DNA from: Loxodes magnus
Taxonomy: Eukaryota; Ciliophora; Karyorelictea; Loxodida; Loxodidae
DNA: 64,000 nucleotides
NCBI GenBank assembly: GCA_946699065.1
Contig: CAMPDV010000194.1
Coordinates: forward strand, 1-64,000
Direction of reading: 5' to 3'
In this document: one piece after another, positions 36,416-64,000 of the stretch
How positions within the stretch are numbered: the stretch's first letter is position 1
Layout: every line of letters starts with the position of its first letter
Made by a program: the position numbers and the translations under genes
Notes under the pieces: model-generated
What the model was told of the DNA's origin: nothing
The model's database searches: none
The model's input: only the letters and a program-made list of their open reading frames with translations

Positions 36416-36867
36416 AAACAAAAAAATCTTAAAGCCAAAGGAGAAATAAATAATAAACCTTCTTTTTTTATTAATACTTATTCATAATTAAATATAGAAC
36501 TGATGAGAGTCAAACATTCTTCGAAATCCAGGTTCTCTGTCTAATCGTATGAACACTTTATCTGGAGAATAAGTATTTAATTTTCTCAGTCAGAACAGAT
36601 AATAAGGATGATCTGAGTTTAATCCATACTCGGTGTGTACTAAATTACAATGTATCACTAAACTAGGCAGTTCATGGGATTGAGAGTGAAGATCAATCCT
36701 GAAGCAGAGCGACTATGATTACATGAATACGGTAAATGGAAGCTAGGATAGGTCCTTAATGTTCTGCTTTTATTTAAATTATAACATAATTGTATAAAAA
36801 TTGGAAATCTCAACGAAAAATTAAGCATAATAAAAATACTATTTTATTATATAATAAAAAAATTTTA

Positions 36868-37230
36868 AATAGGGTGGAAAGCCCTTTCCTTTGAATGCTG
36901 CTTGGAAGTCCAGCAATGAAATTAAAAAATGAGCACGGTCGGAGGATAAATAGGAGGAAGAGAAACCAATAACAAGAGAAGGAAGATTCAACAAGCTGGA
37001 GAACTCTGAAGGCCAGGAGGAAACTTTCTTCATCATAGATCGGGGAAATGTACCCGTAATCGCATATTGCATCCTATGCTTTGGAAGGAAAAATTACAGG
37101 GACGTACTGCAGGAAGAGAAAACAAGGATAGAGAGACCAATAAATTTTTTTTCGACATAAATAAAATTAATTAAAAGAGCTGCGCACCGATGAGAGTGCT
37201 ACACGCTTTATAATCCAATTTATTTATTTT
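36868..37230 (+). repeat. SINE-like element, family B, copy 1
   Basis: About 360 bp, nearly identical to 46599-46969, which implies recent movement. It starts AATAGGGTGG. The core near 37040-37090 has ATCGGGGAAATGTACCCGT, then a GCTTTGG block. The shared stem-loop tail is at 37177-37210, followed by TTTATTTATT. Flanked on the left by family A copy 2, about 450 bp away, and on the right by a minus-oriented family C element. No coding potential expected. Confidence 0.8.
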
Positions 37231-40322: not shown

Positions 40323-41165
40323 ATGGTACCTAAGAAATAATAGATCTCTATTAATGAATATTTTTAAAAATAAGAATAGCATCCTAATTTAATCGAATAA
40401 TCATCTTAATAAGACTAAGAACAATAACCTTAGTATTCTTTGTATAATCAGAGCAACAAATGATATATAATATATAATACGAGCTAAAACAGCAAAGAAT
40501 AAGAGTAGAAAATTAGAAAAAATATTAGATAAATTGATTGAATAACTAGATCAATATTTCTAGCTATATGAGAAACTCTTGACAAGCTTTAAGAGTCAAT
40601 AGTAGCTAAATTTGAAGATATTGGCAAATAATTCGATGAAATTCCTCAATTATTTTAATTCAAATTATCTAAATTCTAATATGAAATTAAAGAACTTTAA
40701 GTAAAGTAAGAATAATAGCAGCAGCAGTATAAAAATCACAAGATTAGTAATCAAGCATTCTAATGGAAATCGAACCTGAATAATAATAATAAGATACAAA
40801 TAAAATAAATTACTATCGTTGAAAGATCGGGTTCTATATATGTCAGGAAAACCACTGTTGAAGATAGTGCTGAAAGAAAAATGGAATTTAAATAAATATG
40901 AAATAAATATTAGACTAACTTTACTGCATTTGACCAACAGAACAGGTTAAATATATAGAAAATAAATTTTACAACTCAAGATTTCAAAAATAAAATAGCA
41001 AGTGAAATAGAAATAAGAAGGACGAATGATTTTTTGGTGGAAAATAAGGATGGCGGGCTTACGAAGTCCTACGCCATCCTTTAGTTTGGGAAGAACGGAA
41101 TCAAGTTAGTTGTGAAATTCTCTTCTAAGAAAAAAAGCTTAATTTTACCTTTTTTATTAAAAAAT
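40323..41165 (+). CDS. Gag-like or unknown protein carried by an inserted segment
   Basis: A good frame from ATG 40323 using TAA, TAG and TGA as sense codons. Q-rich N-terminus, helical middle with TGA-encoded Trp, Gln-rich linker (40700-40730), then a compact, well-balanced C-terminal part (about 40810-41110) that includes R-R-T-N-D-F-L-V-E-N-K-D-G-G-L-T-K-S-Y. No in-frame TGA closes it within the segment; translation would run into flanking DNA, so the true end is unknown. The segment is bounded by near-identical repeats (40315-40330 and 41154-41171) and has an empty-looking counterpart near 63572-63600. No zinc knuckle is visible. The gag label is by association with the neighbouring element. 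Confidence 0.45.
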
Positions 41166-41472: not shown

Positions 41473-42431
41473 AATTTTTAAGATTAAATTACTAAATTAA
41501 ATTAAAAAGTTTAAATTGGAGTTTAGTGAACTTGGAGGACTTTCAGCCTCGTTTTCACAGGACCAGTTTGATAACCTGGCTGGAACCAGCTCCCTTCAGG
41601 ACTCTTTCTTCAGTCGCCTTAGATTGTATACCACTTCGGTTTGTAGATTTGACCTCCTGACGGATAAAATTAGTTACAGAATTCTCGTCTAATTTTATCC
41701 TAATATTAGTACTATTATTTTTCTTATTATTTTCTATTCTAGTACTATTATTTAATTAATTTCAATTTCTAACATGTCTATATTTATGTCCAGTTTTTTT
41801 GCATACAAAACATCTTGGTTTATTCCTAATTCATTTCTTGTCTGGACTCCTCGGTAAATTAATAGCTCCTTCTATGTCCATTGGATCTTGAATTGTCTAC
41901 TGTTGCTACTTGCCGTTCTCTTCAAGCACAGTTTTTCTCTGTTGTAGCAATCCCATTTCCCTGAAGAAAATGTTTTGCTCTCGATCGTAGACTTCCCAGA
42001 AGCTTTCTTTCCATTCCTTGAGCTCAGTAACTTGATTTTTTAGAGCTCTATTCTCTAATCGTAGCTTCTTTACTTCCTCCTTCAGGTCAGAGAATGCGAC
42101 TAAAATTTATGCCTGTTCTTCCTGGAATTGTGGCATTGCAAACTCTCGCACGGCTGCTGCTTCTTGCGTCTCCAGCACCTTTCTATGTCCTTCCTCCTCA
42201 GTTGGTGTCATCGAGGTAGCCTTTTGGCGCTTTTATCCCATCTTTTAAGTTGATCTGGAAGTTCCTAGTTGAGTCTATTATTCTTGAAGGTTTTGAGAAG
42301 AAGATTATTTCTAGGAAGAAGACGTGTTAGTTAGAGATGAGGGTTCTTACTTTCTCTCCCCTTTTTAGGAGGCGGTATAAAAGCCTTTCTTGAACCCTTC
42401 TATCATTTTTTTTTAATTTTTAAGATTAAAT
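41473..42431 (-). mobile_element. Gag-only retroposon-like element with perfect 17-bp direct repeats
   Basis: The 17-mer AATTTTTAAGATTAAAT stands at 41473-41489 and 42415-42431, enclosing 925 bp. The interior is much richer in G+C than its flanks and is almost filled by one minus-strand gene. The 3' end, read on the minus strand, is a run of TTTAATTTAATTT-like sequence touching the direct repeat, as in elements inserted by target-primed reverse transcription. Two other copies of the surrounding unit (about 52070-52140 on the opposite strand and about 63895-63925) lack it. No RT is encoded, so movement would need an enzyme supplied elsewhere. Confidence 0.7.
41555..42406 (-). CDS. Gag-like coiled-coil protein with zinc-knuckle-type motif
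   Basis: Minus strand from ATG 42404-42406 to TGA 41555-41557 (second in-frame TGA at 41543-41545), 283 residues. Order: Ser/Gln-rich N-terminus, then a strong heptad coiled coil (about residues 95-160, with L-K-E-E-V-K-K-L-R-L-E-N-R-A-L). Next is a Gln-rich linker with P-M-D-I-E-G, then C-F-V-C-K-K-T-G-H-K-Y-R-H-V (about residue 205). The last has C-x2-C-x4-H spacing, but the expected fourth Cys is Val. A His one residue earlier could serve as the fourth ligand. A basic C-terminus follows. This is the layout of a nucleic-acid-binding, self-assembling gag or LINE ORF1-type protein. TGA encodes Trp at two sites. Fills its element almost completely. Confidence 0.65.
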
Positions 42432-45280: not shown

Positions 45281-46595
45281 ATGAATAATTTCTATCTAGA
45301 AATTAGTGAATATCCTTATTTTCACGATAATTAAATTAAATATTATATTTGCTTACTTATTTTCTTATAATTATCGTTAATCATTTTCAAAATAAGGGCT
45401 AGAAAAATAAAGTACATATATAGCTTCTTCCTGTGTAGAAAGCTACTTCTTAATCTTAGAAGATCTTAGTATTTTTTATACTTCCAATAATGTACTGCTT
45501 AGCAAGTCTGATAAACATGCTATCTAATTAAGAAACTACACTATTAGATTATATATTGAATTTTTGCTTTAAGAAACACATTCAGTATATAGACCATACA
45601 AAATTGATTAAAAAATCCTCAGATTACTTAACCTAAACTTAAATCACTACATTAATACAATTTTTTCATAACTGTAAATGCTCCTCATGATCCTTAATAA
45701 CTATCTTCCGAAGTTAAAAATCAGATATTTGTACCATATTTGAATCTTTTTCCTTTATTTTACAGTAATTTCTGAACCTTCAAAGCCACATATTGTAAGT
45801 AGTAGTTTAGTTTTTTAAAGATAAGCTGTATAATAATGACCTTTACAAATAAATAGCTGGACTTATAGGAGTATAGTACATTTAAATGACAACTTCTCCT
45901 AACTCAGGCTTTGAAAGTTAAGCATCTGTATATAATTAAATTGATCTATTTTTATTTAGAATTAAAGTATTAATATTTTATCTTTTTAAACCTTTCTGAG
46001 TTATCCTATATTTATCTTAAATCAAAGTGATTAATAGATTATAGCCTTTTTTGCTAATTAATTTAGTAATGTTTTTCAAAAAAAAAATTGAAAGAAAAAT
46101 TCTTTTTTGCTTTAACTGTACTAGTGAATATTCTAGGTTACGTTCACTAGCTATTAGCATAATATACCTATAATTTTATTTCAGGTAAGCAACCTTATCA
46201 GAAATTTTTTAAAGTGAAACTAGATAAAATTTAATTATCATTGCAACATACAAAAAAAAGAACTTACAAAATTATAAATTTCTAATTATTAGAATTTATT
46301 TAGGAATCTCTAGTTCAGGGTTAATTTATTTTGCTTTTCGGAATCATTCGAATGATTCTTATTTCAAATCTTGAAGAAAAAGATCTTTATTATGAAAGTA
46401 TCTGCATGTTTTGGATTAAGTTAATTAGATTCAATAACTTCAGAATAGTTTCCCTAGTTTATATAGAGAATAGCCTTTATGTTTGCAAGGACTTGCCTAA
46501 TTAGGATTCATTTTAAGAGTATTATCAAAGCTCATTGTTTCATTGTATCTCCCTAAATTATTCAATAAAAATCCTTTAGTATTATATATATATAA
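45281..46595 (+). CDS. Unknown protein gene, apparently interrupted at its 3' end by a family B element
   Basis: ATG 45281 starts a single frame (M-N-N-F-Y-L-E-I-S-E-Y-P-Y-F) with one likely membrane helix near residues 25-40, then soluble helical sequence. A loop N-A-P-H-D-P-Q-Q-L-S-S-E-V lies near 45680. The frame remains good, with no TGA stop, right up to 46595, where family B copy 2 begins at 46599. The gene therefore seems to lose its end to the insertion, or to continue beyond it (see 47010-47804). Another frame also looks open here, but this one gives the better protein. No domain recognised. Confidence 0.45.
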
Positions 46596-46598
46596 TTT

Positions 46599-46969
46599 AA
46601 ATAGGGTGGAAAGCCATTTTTTCGGATGCTGCTTGGAGAACCAGCAAGGAAACTAAAAAATGAGCGCAGACGGAGGATAAATAGGAGGAAGAGAAACCAA
46701 TAACAAGAGAAGAAGATTCAACAAGCTGGAGAACTCTGAAGGCCAGGAGGAAACTTTCTTCATCATAGATCGGGGAAATGTACCCGTAATCGCATATTGC
46801 ATCCTATGCTTTGAAAGGAAAAATTACAGGGACGTACTGCAGGAAGAGAAAACAAGGATAGAGAGACCAATATAAAAAATTTTCGACATTAAATAAAATT
46901 AATTTAAAGAGCTGCGCACCAACGAGAGGGCTAAGGCGCTCTATAATCGAATTTATTTATTTATTTATG
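46599..46969 (+). repeat. SINE-like element, family B, copy 2
   Basis: Almost the same sequence as 36868-37230 along its full length, including the GTACCCGTAATCG core and GGGACGTACTGCAGGAAGAG block. The stem-loop tail at 46908-46942 is less well paired. A regular TTTA tandem run closes it (46951-46969). No clear target-site duplication was found. Confidence 0.8.
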
Positions 46970-51798: not shown

Positions 51799-52586
51799 GA
51801 GTTGTGAAACTTTATTTGGACTTAATTTAATTTTCGATTTTAAAGAGAATTATTATTATTCAAAGTAATTTAAATGAATTTTCTTTGTGAGTTAAGTTTG
51901 GTGGGTTATAAAGTTTTTAAAATGTATATATGTATATATTTTTTTAGTAATTAAAAAGATTTATATTCTTAATTTAAAATAAAGGTTGATTAAACAATAT
52001 AGGCTTTGAAATTTGTCAAAGTGTGTATGTCAATTTAAGAACGGGCATGTTAAATATATTTTTAAGAATTTAAGATATCTAAGTAAAATTACTTAAGTCT
52101 TTTTTAATTTTTTATCAGAGTTGTCAATAAAAGAAATTTTTTCGAGATGGACTGACAAAGTTATCATTTGATCATATTTTTTACTTTTTAAGTTTATAGT
52201 TTTTATACTTTTTAAAAAAATTAATTCAGTATTACATTTAATTTTTAGTATGTTGTTTTAAATCAGAAAGTAGTATAGTTAAAATAATCTATTATGTTTT
52301 CATCATATTTTTCCTATAAAATTCTTTATTACTTCAAAGTAATTTAAAATACAGCTAAGTTTTTTTAATATGAACAAAATCGAGTAAAGAATACAATTTA
52401 AATCTTATTTTATATATAGATATTTCCTTGCTAGGATATGATTTTTCTATACTAAATAGATTAAAATGAATAGTGAATAATAGGCATTTAATTATAGGAT
52501 AAATATACTAATCAAGTAACGAGTTAAGTAAGGATTATATATAGGCATAAAAAAACTATCCTTAAATATTTACTAAGAAGGAAAAA

Positions 52587-62899: not shown

Positions 62900-64000
62900 T
62901 CTAAATTTTTTAAAACTTTTTTCCGTCCCAAAATTTCCTTTAGTGTAAAACTCAGAGCAAAAAGTCTTTTACATTTTTTCCATACTGAGAATAATTTTAT
63001 TATTCTCTGCTTCTTGAAAACCATTTTTCGAAAAATTTGCCTTTTTAAAACTCAATCTTTTAGTTTAAAAAAAAATTTAGTCTGTCCTGAAAATTTCCTG
63101 TCTTGTAAAACTTAAGGCAAAAAAATTTAATCACAAAGTATTTTTAATTTCTCCCAAAATTTTTCGAATTTTTCTTAATAAAAAATTTTCTTTAACTCAA
63201 AACAAAACCACAAATTTTATTTTTAAATCAAAAAAATTTCATTTCCACAAAAGTCCATTAAAAAAGAATTTCCAAATTCAAATTTGATTGAAAAATATTA
63301 TTTTATTCTAGTTTTATTTCTCACGACATTTATATTTTACGTTTTTTCTTGAAATTTTATTCCTATTTTACTTTTTTAATCCCGATTTCCCTACTTTTAG
63401 TCAGTCGGAAAAATGTCCTAAACGCTTAGCGAAAAAAACAAATTTTTTATTTTCATGAAATTTATGCCTTGATTTAATGAAGGTTTTATAGAAAAAAATA
63501 ATTACTTTTCAGAAAAAATATTTTTCAATTCTTAATAAAATAATATACATAAAAATAAAAATTATAAGATGATATTATCAAAAAAATGTTTTCAAAAATA
63601 ATAAAATAAATTTTCAAAAAAATTAATAAAAGAAAAAGCGTAACTTAAAATTAATAGCTTTCTACAATATTTTTTTAAAATAACATACTAAAAATCAAAT
63701 AAAACACTAAATAAAAAAAATTTAAACGCAATAAAAGATAAAATTGTCTAAAATAAAAATATGATTAAAAATTAACTTTGCAAGTCCTTCTTAAAATAAT
63801 ATTTTTATTTTGCAAGTCCGATAAAAAAATTTTAACAGACTTAAAATTATTGCTTAGTTTTAAATTTTTACAAAACTTAAAGAATAAATCAAACAAATTT
63901 TTTTGTTCAAATAAAAGAAACTTATTTTTATTATATATATTTAAATAATTAAAAATATATTTAACATAACCATTCTTAAATTGACATACACACTTTCACA
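62900..64000 (+). repeat. Start of another copy of the repeated WD40 unit, without the two gag-like insertions
   Basis: 63370-63572 matches 40111-40315, 63585-63895 matches 41171-41473, and 63920-64000 matches 42431-42510. So the unit is the same as at 40.1-42.5 kb minus both inserted segments. The TCAGAGCAAAAA-type motif occurs at 62950, 63100 and 63420. By analogy a WD40 gene on the minus strand should have its 3' end just past the right edge. Confidence 0.65.

What the first reader, a model, noticed from the sequence alone, without database searches (positions are those of the whole stretch)
41473..42431. Gag-only element caught with a perfect target duplication and two empty sites
A 17-bp direct repeat encloses 925 bp filled by one gene (coiled coil plus zinc-knuckle-like motif). 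Copies of the same flanking DNA at about 52070-52140 (inverted) and 63895-63925 lack it. So it inserted after the flanks were duplicated. An autonomous-looking gag gene without RT, with its own 3' A/T tail, is unusual: it may be a non-autonomous retroposon that supplies its own RNA-binding protein.
Basis: partly seen in the sequence, partly recalled or inferred. Interest (0 to 1): 0.85.

Follow-up and report, generated by a model that had tools for sequence, protein, structure and literature searches.

The report
Gag-only retroposon family in a ciliate
The insert is one copy of a young, high-copy jumping element in what is very probably the ciliate Loxodes magnus: it carries a gene for an RNA-binding-type protein, readable only in that organism's unusual genetic code, and no copying enzyme of its own.

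Summary
A 925-bp insert (41490-42414, minus strand) lies between perfect 17-bp repeats. Joined flanks match through the junction at 37 of 40 scored places (150 candidates), so the insertion followed duplication of the flanks. The 705.7-Mb genome fits the Loxodes magnus macronuclear assembly, whose code (table 27) reads TAA/TAG as Q and TGA as W or stop; three tubulins carry TAA at glutamine positions. In the standard code no sense frame exceeds 85 aa in 53 copies. Under table 27, 39 of 51 keep a 210-aa frame with coiled coil and CCHC knuckle; the window copy is frameshifted. Target duplications differ between copies (50 copies, 40 sites, median 17 bp; mispaired control median 9, maximum 14). 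The first ~95 bp resemble resident LINE leaders; the Gag does not convincingly resemble their ORF1. Two further Gag families share motifs; one pair from family C (71 codons) shows strong constraint (pN/pS 0.17; about 1 in shifted frames). In A none is measurable. Best reading: a non-autonomous, probably LINE-mobilised retroposon carrying a Gag. That Gag packages its own RNA is inferred.

The parts
41473..41489 (.). target-site duplication, left copy
   Evidence: exact 17-mer, two copies in window
42415..42431 (.). target-site duplication, right copy
41490..42414 (-). family A Gag-only retroposon, full length (5' end at 42414)
   Evidence: 40 scored genome matches of 833 candidates, the other 39 at 96-98% identity; 53 distinct copies
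42318..42411 (-). 5' head homologous to the 5' leader of resident LINEs (approximate limits, taken from copy L014)
   Evidence: local alignment score 72/70/59 against LINE heads in L085/L091/L078; maxima of 200 mononucleotide shuffles 24/27/25
41610..42241 (-). Gag reading frame under table 27, 210 codons plus TGA; frameshifted near 41773 in this copy
   Evidence: tblastn code 27: 42241-41771 (94%) and 41774-41610 (98%) to L014 Gag
41909..42106 (-). coiled-coil stretch, 66 aa open even under the standard code
   Evidence: weak leucine-zipper matches below Pfam cut-off; coiled coil judged by eye, no dedicated predictor run
41768..41815 (-). zinc knuckle (approximate limits); CFVCKQTGHKYRQC in 36 of 53 copies, here CFVCKKTGHKYRHV after the 1-nt loss
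   Evidence: CCHC pattern in frame in 36 of 51 copies
41490..41520 (-). 3' A/T tail of the element, variable between copies after CTTTTTAATTT
63774..64000 (+). paralogous empty site, continuing past the window end
   Evidence: 81% to joined flanks, query 1-278 of 280
51964..52111 (-). right-flank paralogue without insert; left flank mostly missing
   Evidence: query 131-278 only

Best explanation
Family A is a non-autonomous non-LTR retroposon. Shown: many near-identical copies inserted at unrelated sites with target duplications of varying length and sequence, complete 5' ends in most of a sample chosen for near-full matches, two apparently 5'-truncated copies, an A/T 3' tail, no RT or endonuclease gene, a 5' leader homologous to resident endonuclease-RT LINEs, and a reading frame (table 27) for a coiled-coil/CCHC Gag. 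Inferred: RNA polymerase II transcribes it from the LINE-like leader; its Gag multimerises through the coiled coil and binds RNA through the knuckle, preferentially its own; the LINE endonuclease and RT then insert it in trans by target-primed reverse transcription.
For: Copies: 40 scored of 833 candidates; 53 distinct. Duplications: (50 of 53 copies usable; 41 of 50 have 15 bp or more; none of 244 mispaired controls exceeds 14); 40 distinct sites. Youth: 0.11-2.78% from the family majority, counted at columns where at least 90% agree; pairwise median 2.5% (51 copies, a sample biased to close relatives). Code: and the Loxodes paper (PMC11441545, passages). ORF. LINE leader. LINE with Exo_endo_phos_2 and RVT_1. 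Related Gag families. Selection on the family C frame.
Against: No purifying selection is measurable inside family A: shared variants N36:S14 against singletons N105:S37, and in two of three subfamily pairs a shifted frame gave a lower pN/pS than the coding frame. Nine of the 50 duplications (11-14 bp) lie within the range of the mispaired control. No similarity of A's 3' end to the three LINE loci was found, whereas an ordinary SINE-like family does share a LINE 3' end. Seven of the 39 in-frame copies carry one or two further internal TGA, which could be stops. No RNA, protein or mobilisation data. The CCHC match to Pfam is below cut-off (14.2 against 20.8 bits).
Confidence: 0.62

Rival explanations
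1. A SINE-like passenger: the LINE machinery mobilises family A because of its leader and tail, and the Gag frame is a relic that no longer matters for spread.
For: No selection visible within family A; 12 of 51 copies have lost the frame and 7 of the other 39 have extra internal TGA; with only TGA as stop, frames stay open easily.
Against: The Gag motifs recur in two other families, and the family C frame is constrained.
Confidence: 0.27
2. A half-LINE: an internal-deletion derivative of a resident LINE that kept its leader and ORF1, like mammalian HAL1.
For: Shared 5' leader with LINEs. The LINE ORF1 in L078 and an upstream frame in L079 also hold a CCHC knuckle. With composition correction off, the whole-element translation aligned to a K/E-rich stretch of the L080 ORF1 region at 20% identity (33.9 bits, E 5e-4), a score reached by 6 of 500 shuffles.
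Against: With composition correction that L080 hit disappears, and against the ORF1 regions of all three LINE loci the best Gag A hit is 24.3 bits while shuffled sequences reach 27.3. No shared 3' end found. Only three LINE loci were examined.
Confidence: 0.15
3. Processed pseudogenes of a host zinc-knuckle gene, copied by the LINE machinery.
For: Target duplications and A/T tail would look the same.
Against: LINE-like leader; several diverged high-copy families with the same architecture. A source gene was not searched for.
Confidence: 0.06
4. A DNA transposon or LTR-type element.
For: It has a defined length and a direct repeat at each end.
Against: Duplications vary from 11 to 21 bp, apparent 5' truncation occurs, the A/T tail varies.
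Confidence: 0.01

Closest known systems
HAL1 (half-L1) of mammals
   Same: LINE-dependent, encodes only an RNA-binding ORF1-type protein, no RT (PMC5753468, passages: non-autonomous L1 derivative, encodes only ORF1p, arose several times)
   Different: HAL1 keeps the ORF1 of its own LINE; here only the leader clearly resembles the LINE, and the Gag is not convincingly the ORF1 of any of the three LINE loci compared
HeT-A of Drosophila
   Same: Gag-coding element without RT that depends on partner elements (PMC5537684, passages)
   Different: HeT-A adds to telomere ends; family A inserts at sites with target duplications
SINEs with a LINE-shared 3' end
   Same: short, high-copy, dependent on LINE machinery (recalled)
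   Different: SINEs are non-coding; family A shares a 5' head, not a detected 3' end. A SINE-like family of the ordinary kind is present in the same window

Membership tests
LINE-mobilised non-autonomous non-LTR retroposon | variable-length target-site duplications at different sites | tested here: met
   50 of 53 copies usable, 11-21 bp, 40 sites; 41 of 50 above the control maximum of 14
LINE-mobilised non-autonomous non-LTR retroposon | A/T-rich 3' tail and 5'-truncated copies | tested here: met
   variable tail; 2 of 53 copies apparently 5'-truncated, L074 and L065, in a sample chosen for near-full matches
LINE-mobilised non-autonomous non-LTR retroposon | no RT or endonuclease of its own | tested here: met
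   LINE ORF2 hits the window only outside the insert at E 1e-4; Gag has no RT match
LINE-mobilised non-autonomous non-LTR retroposon | sequence shared with a resident LINE | tested here: met
   5' head only
LINE-mobilised non-autonomous non-LTR retroposon | dependence on LINE RT in trans | not testable with these tools
   needs an experiment
HAL1-type half-LINE | encoded protein is the ORF1 of the partner LINE | tested here: not met
   no hit above shuffled sequences in the ORF1 regions of three LINE loci; one composition-driven hit reached by 6 of 500 shuffles; other LINE families not examined
HAL1-type half-LINE | 3' end shared with the partner LINE | tested here: not met
   blastn of a full copy against L078, L079, L080 finds the 5' head and otherwise weak A/T matches
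HeT-A-type element | Gag-only coding, no RT | tested here: met
HeT-A-type element | confined to chromosome ends | tested here: not met
   window copy lies 41 kb into a contig of 501,901 bp and copies sit between target duplications
SINE | RNA polymerase III promoter or descent from a small RNA | tested here: inconclusive
   one Rfam match, far below its gathering score (22.2 against 70 bits, E 0.27); promoter boxes not modelled
SINE | non-coding | tested here: inconclusive
   frame kept under table 27 in 39 of 51 copies, no selection measurable in A

The most novel reading that the evidence does not exclude
Loxodes carries a class of protein-coding SINE-like elements, in at least three families that by first-look counts rival its LINEs (833-903, 2,507 and 7,942 candidates against 3,403 for RVT_1), in which a LINE leader (family A) or almost no leader (family B) precedes a Gag that does not come from the resident LINE ORF1 and is kept by selection because it acts on the RNA that encodes it. 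This would be a third way of life between LINE and SINE: own packaging protein, borrowed enzyme.
Probability: 0.4. Interest if true: 0.75.

Novelty: new variant of a known kind. Interest (0 to 1): 0.6.

Why it matters
Gag-only retroposons are known from a few animal cases. High-copy, diverged Gag-only families in a living ciliate that does not extensively edit its genome give many replicate copies to ask whether a retroposon gains by making its own RNA-binding protein. In cultured human cells, a polymerase II transcript needed ORF1p as well as ORF2p (PMC2666806, abstract), which gives a concrete reason for such a protein. The case also warns repeat annotators: read in the standard code, these genes look like dead sequence.

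Tried and rejected
First conclusion, later withdrawn: the 53 copies show the same standard-code stop pattern, which I took to mean a non-coding master; the RVT_1 and tubulin searches showed that the organism reads these codons as sense. First guess of organism (an arbuscular mycorrhizal fungus) was wrong. A relative of the 66-aa stretch sought in viral contigs was not found. Pfam found nothing over its cut-offs in the Gag. RNA folding of the 5' head and 3' end of A and a piece of B gave nothing beyond chance (z -0.30, -1.46, -0.04). The gene downstream of ORF2 in two of the three LINE loci was first taken for a third LINE ORF; one search showed that the one in L078 is a family (B) of its own, whose copies begin at one 5' end. 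An allelic empty site for the young copy L064 was not found (2 of 2 matches are its own flanks); the same search for L026 did not complete. A diverged B-like copy in the window gave no selection signal (dN/dS 1.13, interval 0.73-2.04), as expected of a dead copy, with part of that alignment out of register; the script then stopped with an error and the rest was rerun. A first frame count failed and was redone. A first filter for family B copies was too strict (3 of 14 kept) and was redone.

Structure prediction was asked five times and never answered. The 5'-end DNA search did not complete.

Full report
What is there. The 17-mer flanks the insert exactly as described and occurs nowhere else in the window. 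Joined flanks give a continuous match at 63.77-64.05 kb and, in all, at 37 of 40 scored places (of 150 first-look candidates); the remaining three are the two own flanks and the 52-kb paralogue, which has only the right flank. The flanking unit is therefore a repeated unit, and the insert came later.

Which organism and which code. The window lies in an assembly of 705,730,643 bases in 7,843 contigs. The Loxodes magnus macronuclear assembly is given as 706 Mbp, with about 2,700 RVT_1 copies and NCBI table 27, in which UGA is the only stop and also encodes W (PMC11441545, passages read). The identification is inferred from these matches; no tool named the species. Independent support for the code: the 150 scored RVT_1 hits (of 3,403 candidates) each list 15 or more in-frame stops, in a largely repeated pattern. 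The 150 scored tubulin hits (of 258 candidates) list in-frame stops in every row, mostly TAA, with TAG and TGA in many. In three tubulins read through, TAA stands at glutamine positions (the positions are recalled). TAG=Q and TGA=W rest on the paper, not on residues that I checked one by one.

The family. One search scored 40 copies of 833 candidates, the other 39 at 96-98% identity; one search scored 150 of 903 with a 66-aa piece. From 77 loci I kept 53 copies that differ in body or right flank; the rows dropped were the same place fetched twice or an identical duplicate elsewhere. Three could not be read at both ends (L041, L074, L065). In the other 50, the best repeat between left and right flank, one mismatch allowed, is 11-21 bp, median 17; 41 of 50 reach 15 bp or more and 9 lie at 11-14, while 244 mispaired flanks gave median 9 and maximum 14. 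These are 40 distinct sites; ten copies are duplicates of another copy's site. Divergence from the family majority, counted at columns where at least 90% agree, is 0.11-2.78%. The sample was chosen by similarity, so it leans to young and full-length copies.

The gene. Under the standard code the longest sense frame is 85 aa or less in 53 of 53 copies. Under table 27 the frame MGQKRQ...GD-TGA (210 aa; 216 in a subfamily with six more codons; usually one internal TGA as W) is kept, judged by length and final TGA, in 39 of 51 copies, 7 of them with one or two further internal TGA; the CCHC pattern is in frame in 36 of 51. The window copy has lost one nucleotide in the knuckle. The stop leaves about 118 bases of 3' sequence, longer than the median 41 bp given for Loxodes 3'-UTRs, so the exact end of the protein is not settled. 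The frame is also open upstream to the 5'-most ATG, so the protein may be about 55 residues longer.

Relation to LINEs. L078 holds a LINE with an ORF1 ending in a CCHC knuckle and an ORF2 with Exo_endo_phos_2 and RVT_1. The first ~95 bases of family A align to the LINE leaders in L085 and L091 (scores 72 and 70, maxima of 200 shuffles 24 and 27) and ~61 bases to L078 (59 against 25). Gag A against the ORF1 regions of the three LINE loci gives nothing above shuffled sequences (24.3 against 27.3 bits). One earlier hit to the L080 ORF1 region (E 5e-4 with composition correction off) vanishes with the correction and is reached by 6 of 500 shuffles without it. I found no shared 3' end. One family A copy, L039, sits in the TTTA tail behind a LINE-type 3' hairpin.

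Other Gag families. Family B (2,507 candidates, 40 scored, 97-98% apart from the query itself) and family C (7,942 candidates, 150 scored, 80-88% apart from the query's own locus) share with A the order coiled coil, DPM-x-IE, knuckle, G-[KQ]-[IL]-Y-[KR]-x-K tail. B's knuckle is one residue shorter. Among 603 sequences, A against C gives E 0.001 and A against B 0.48, with no shuffled sequence listed; B against C gives 0.031, with one shuffle at 0.54. In family C, L015 against L080 gives pS 0.637 and pN 0.109 over 71 codons, ratio 0.17 (bootstrap 0.08-0.28); the shifted frames give 1.06 and 1.10. Six further comparisons (two queries against C-like copies in the window, L082 and L008, so not independent) give 0.27-0.68 in frame and 0.8-2.35 in shifted frames; their synonymous differences are near or at saturation, in L082 even above 1, so only the direction counts. 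All were aligned as proteins, which favours low values, hence the shifted frames as control. LINE ORF2 gives 0.10-0.59. For family A itself five subfamily pairs give 0.37-1.15, and in two of the three pairs re-tested a shifted frame gave a lower ratio, so nothing can be claimed for A.

Mechanism. Shown: retroposition signature, no own enzyme, LINE-like leader, shared Gag architecture, constraint in a related family. Inferred: transcription by polymerase II, packaging of its own RNA by Gag, LINE enzymes in trans. In human cells a polymerase II transcript needed ORF1p as well as ORF2p (PMC2666806, abstract), which would reward an element that brings its own such protein.

Novelty. The kind is known: HAL1 (PMC5753468, passages) and HeT-A (PMC5537684, passages). 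The variant is new as far as I could see: a LINE leader joined to a Gag that is not convincingly the ORF1 of the LINEs compared, several families, a ciliate, table 27. The main text of the Loxodes genome paper holds no occurrence of 'gag', 'zinc' or 'non-autonomous'; its supplement was not read. Nine paper searches listed no title on such elements in ciliates; several listed only part of their hits (8 of 239, 10 of 18, 8 of 49), and the library is open-access only.

Noticed in passing
window 36829-37229 (+) and 46564-46962 (+): A SINE-like family of about 400 bp, 90% alike in the window, 86-87% in fetched loci; its last ~60 bp (hairpin GCTGCGCACC..GTGCTACGCGC and TTTA tail) are 87% identical to the 3' end of the LINE in L078.
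   Followed up: partly
window 49478-48706 (-), 40814-40978 (+), 61800-61609 (-): Older, diverged members of Gag families B and C.
   Followed up: partly
window 2630-2448 (-), 39671-39255 (-), 58041-57992 (-): A fragment of LINE ORF2, a weak second one (23% identity, E 9e-5), and a LINE 5' leader fragment.
   Followed up: no
G000 contigs C5131 and C20: RT domains repeat in tandem about every 2,504-2,532 bp, as if LINE pieces form arrays.
   Followed up: no
G000 contigs C441 and C64: Tubulin genes in large numbers, on C441 partly in a regular tandem array of 3,342 bp.
   Followed up: no
L085, L091, L078, L080: A family B Gag element is followed directly by a LINE leader (L085, L091); in L078 and L080 a Gag gene lies about 100 bp behind a LINE 3' end. 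Insertion into A/T tails is one explanation.
   Followed up: partly
family A, 51 copies: C-to-T and G-to-A changes are the most frequent class (1.45% each), as by cytosine deamination.
   Followed up: no
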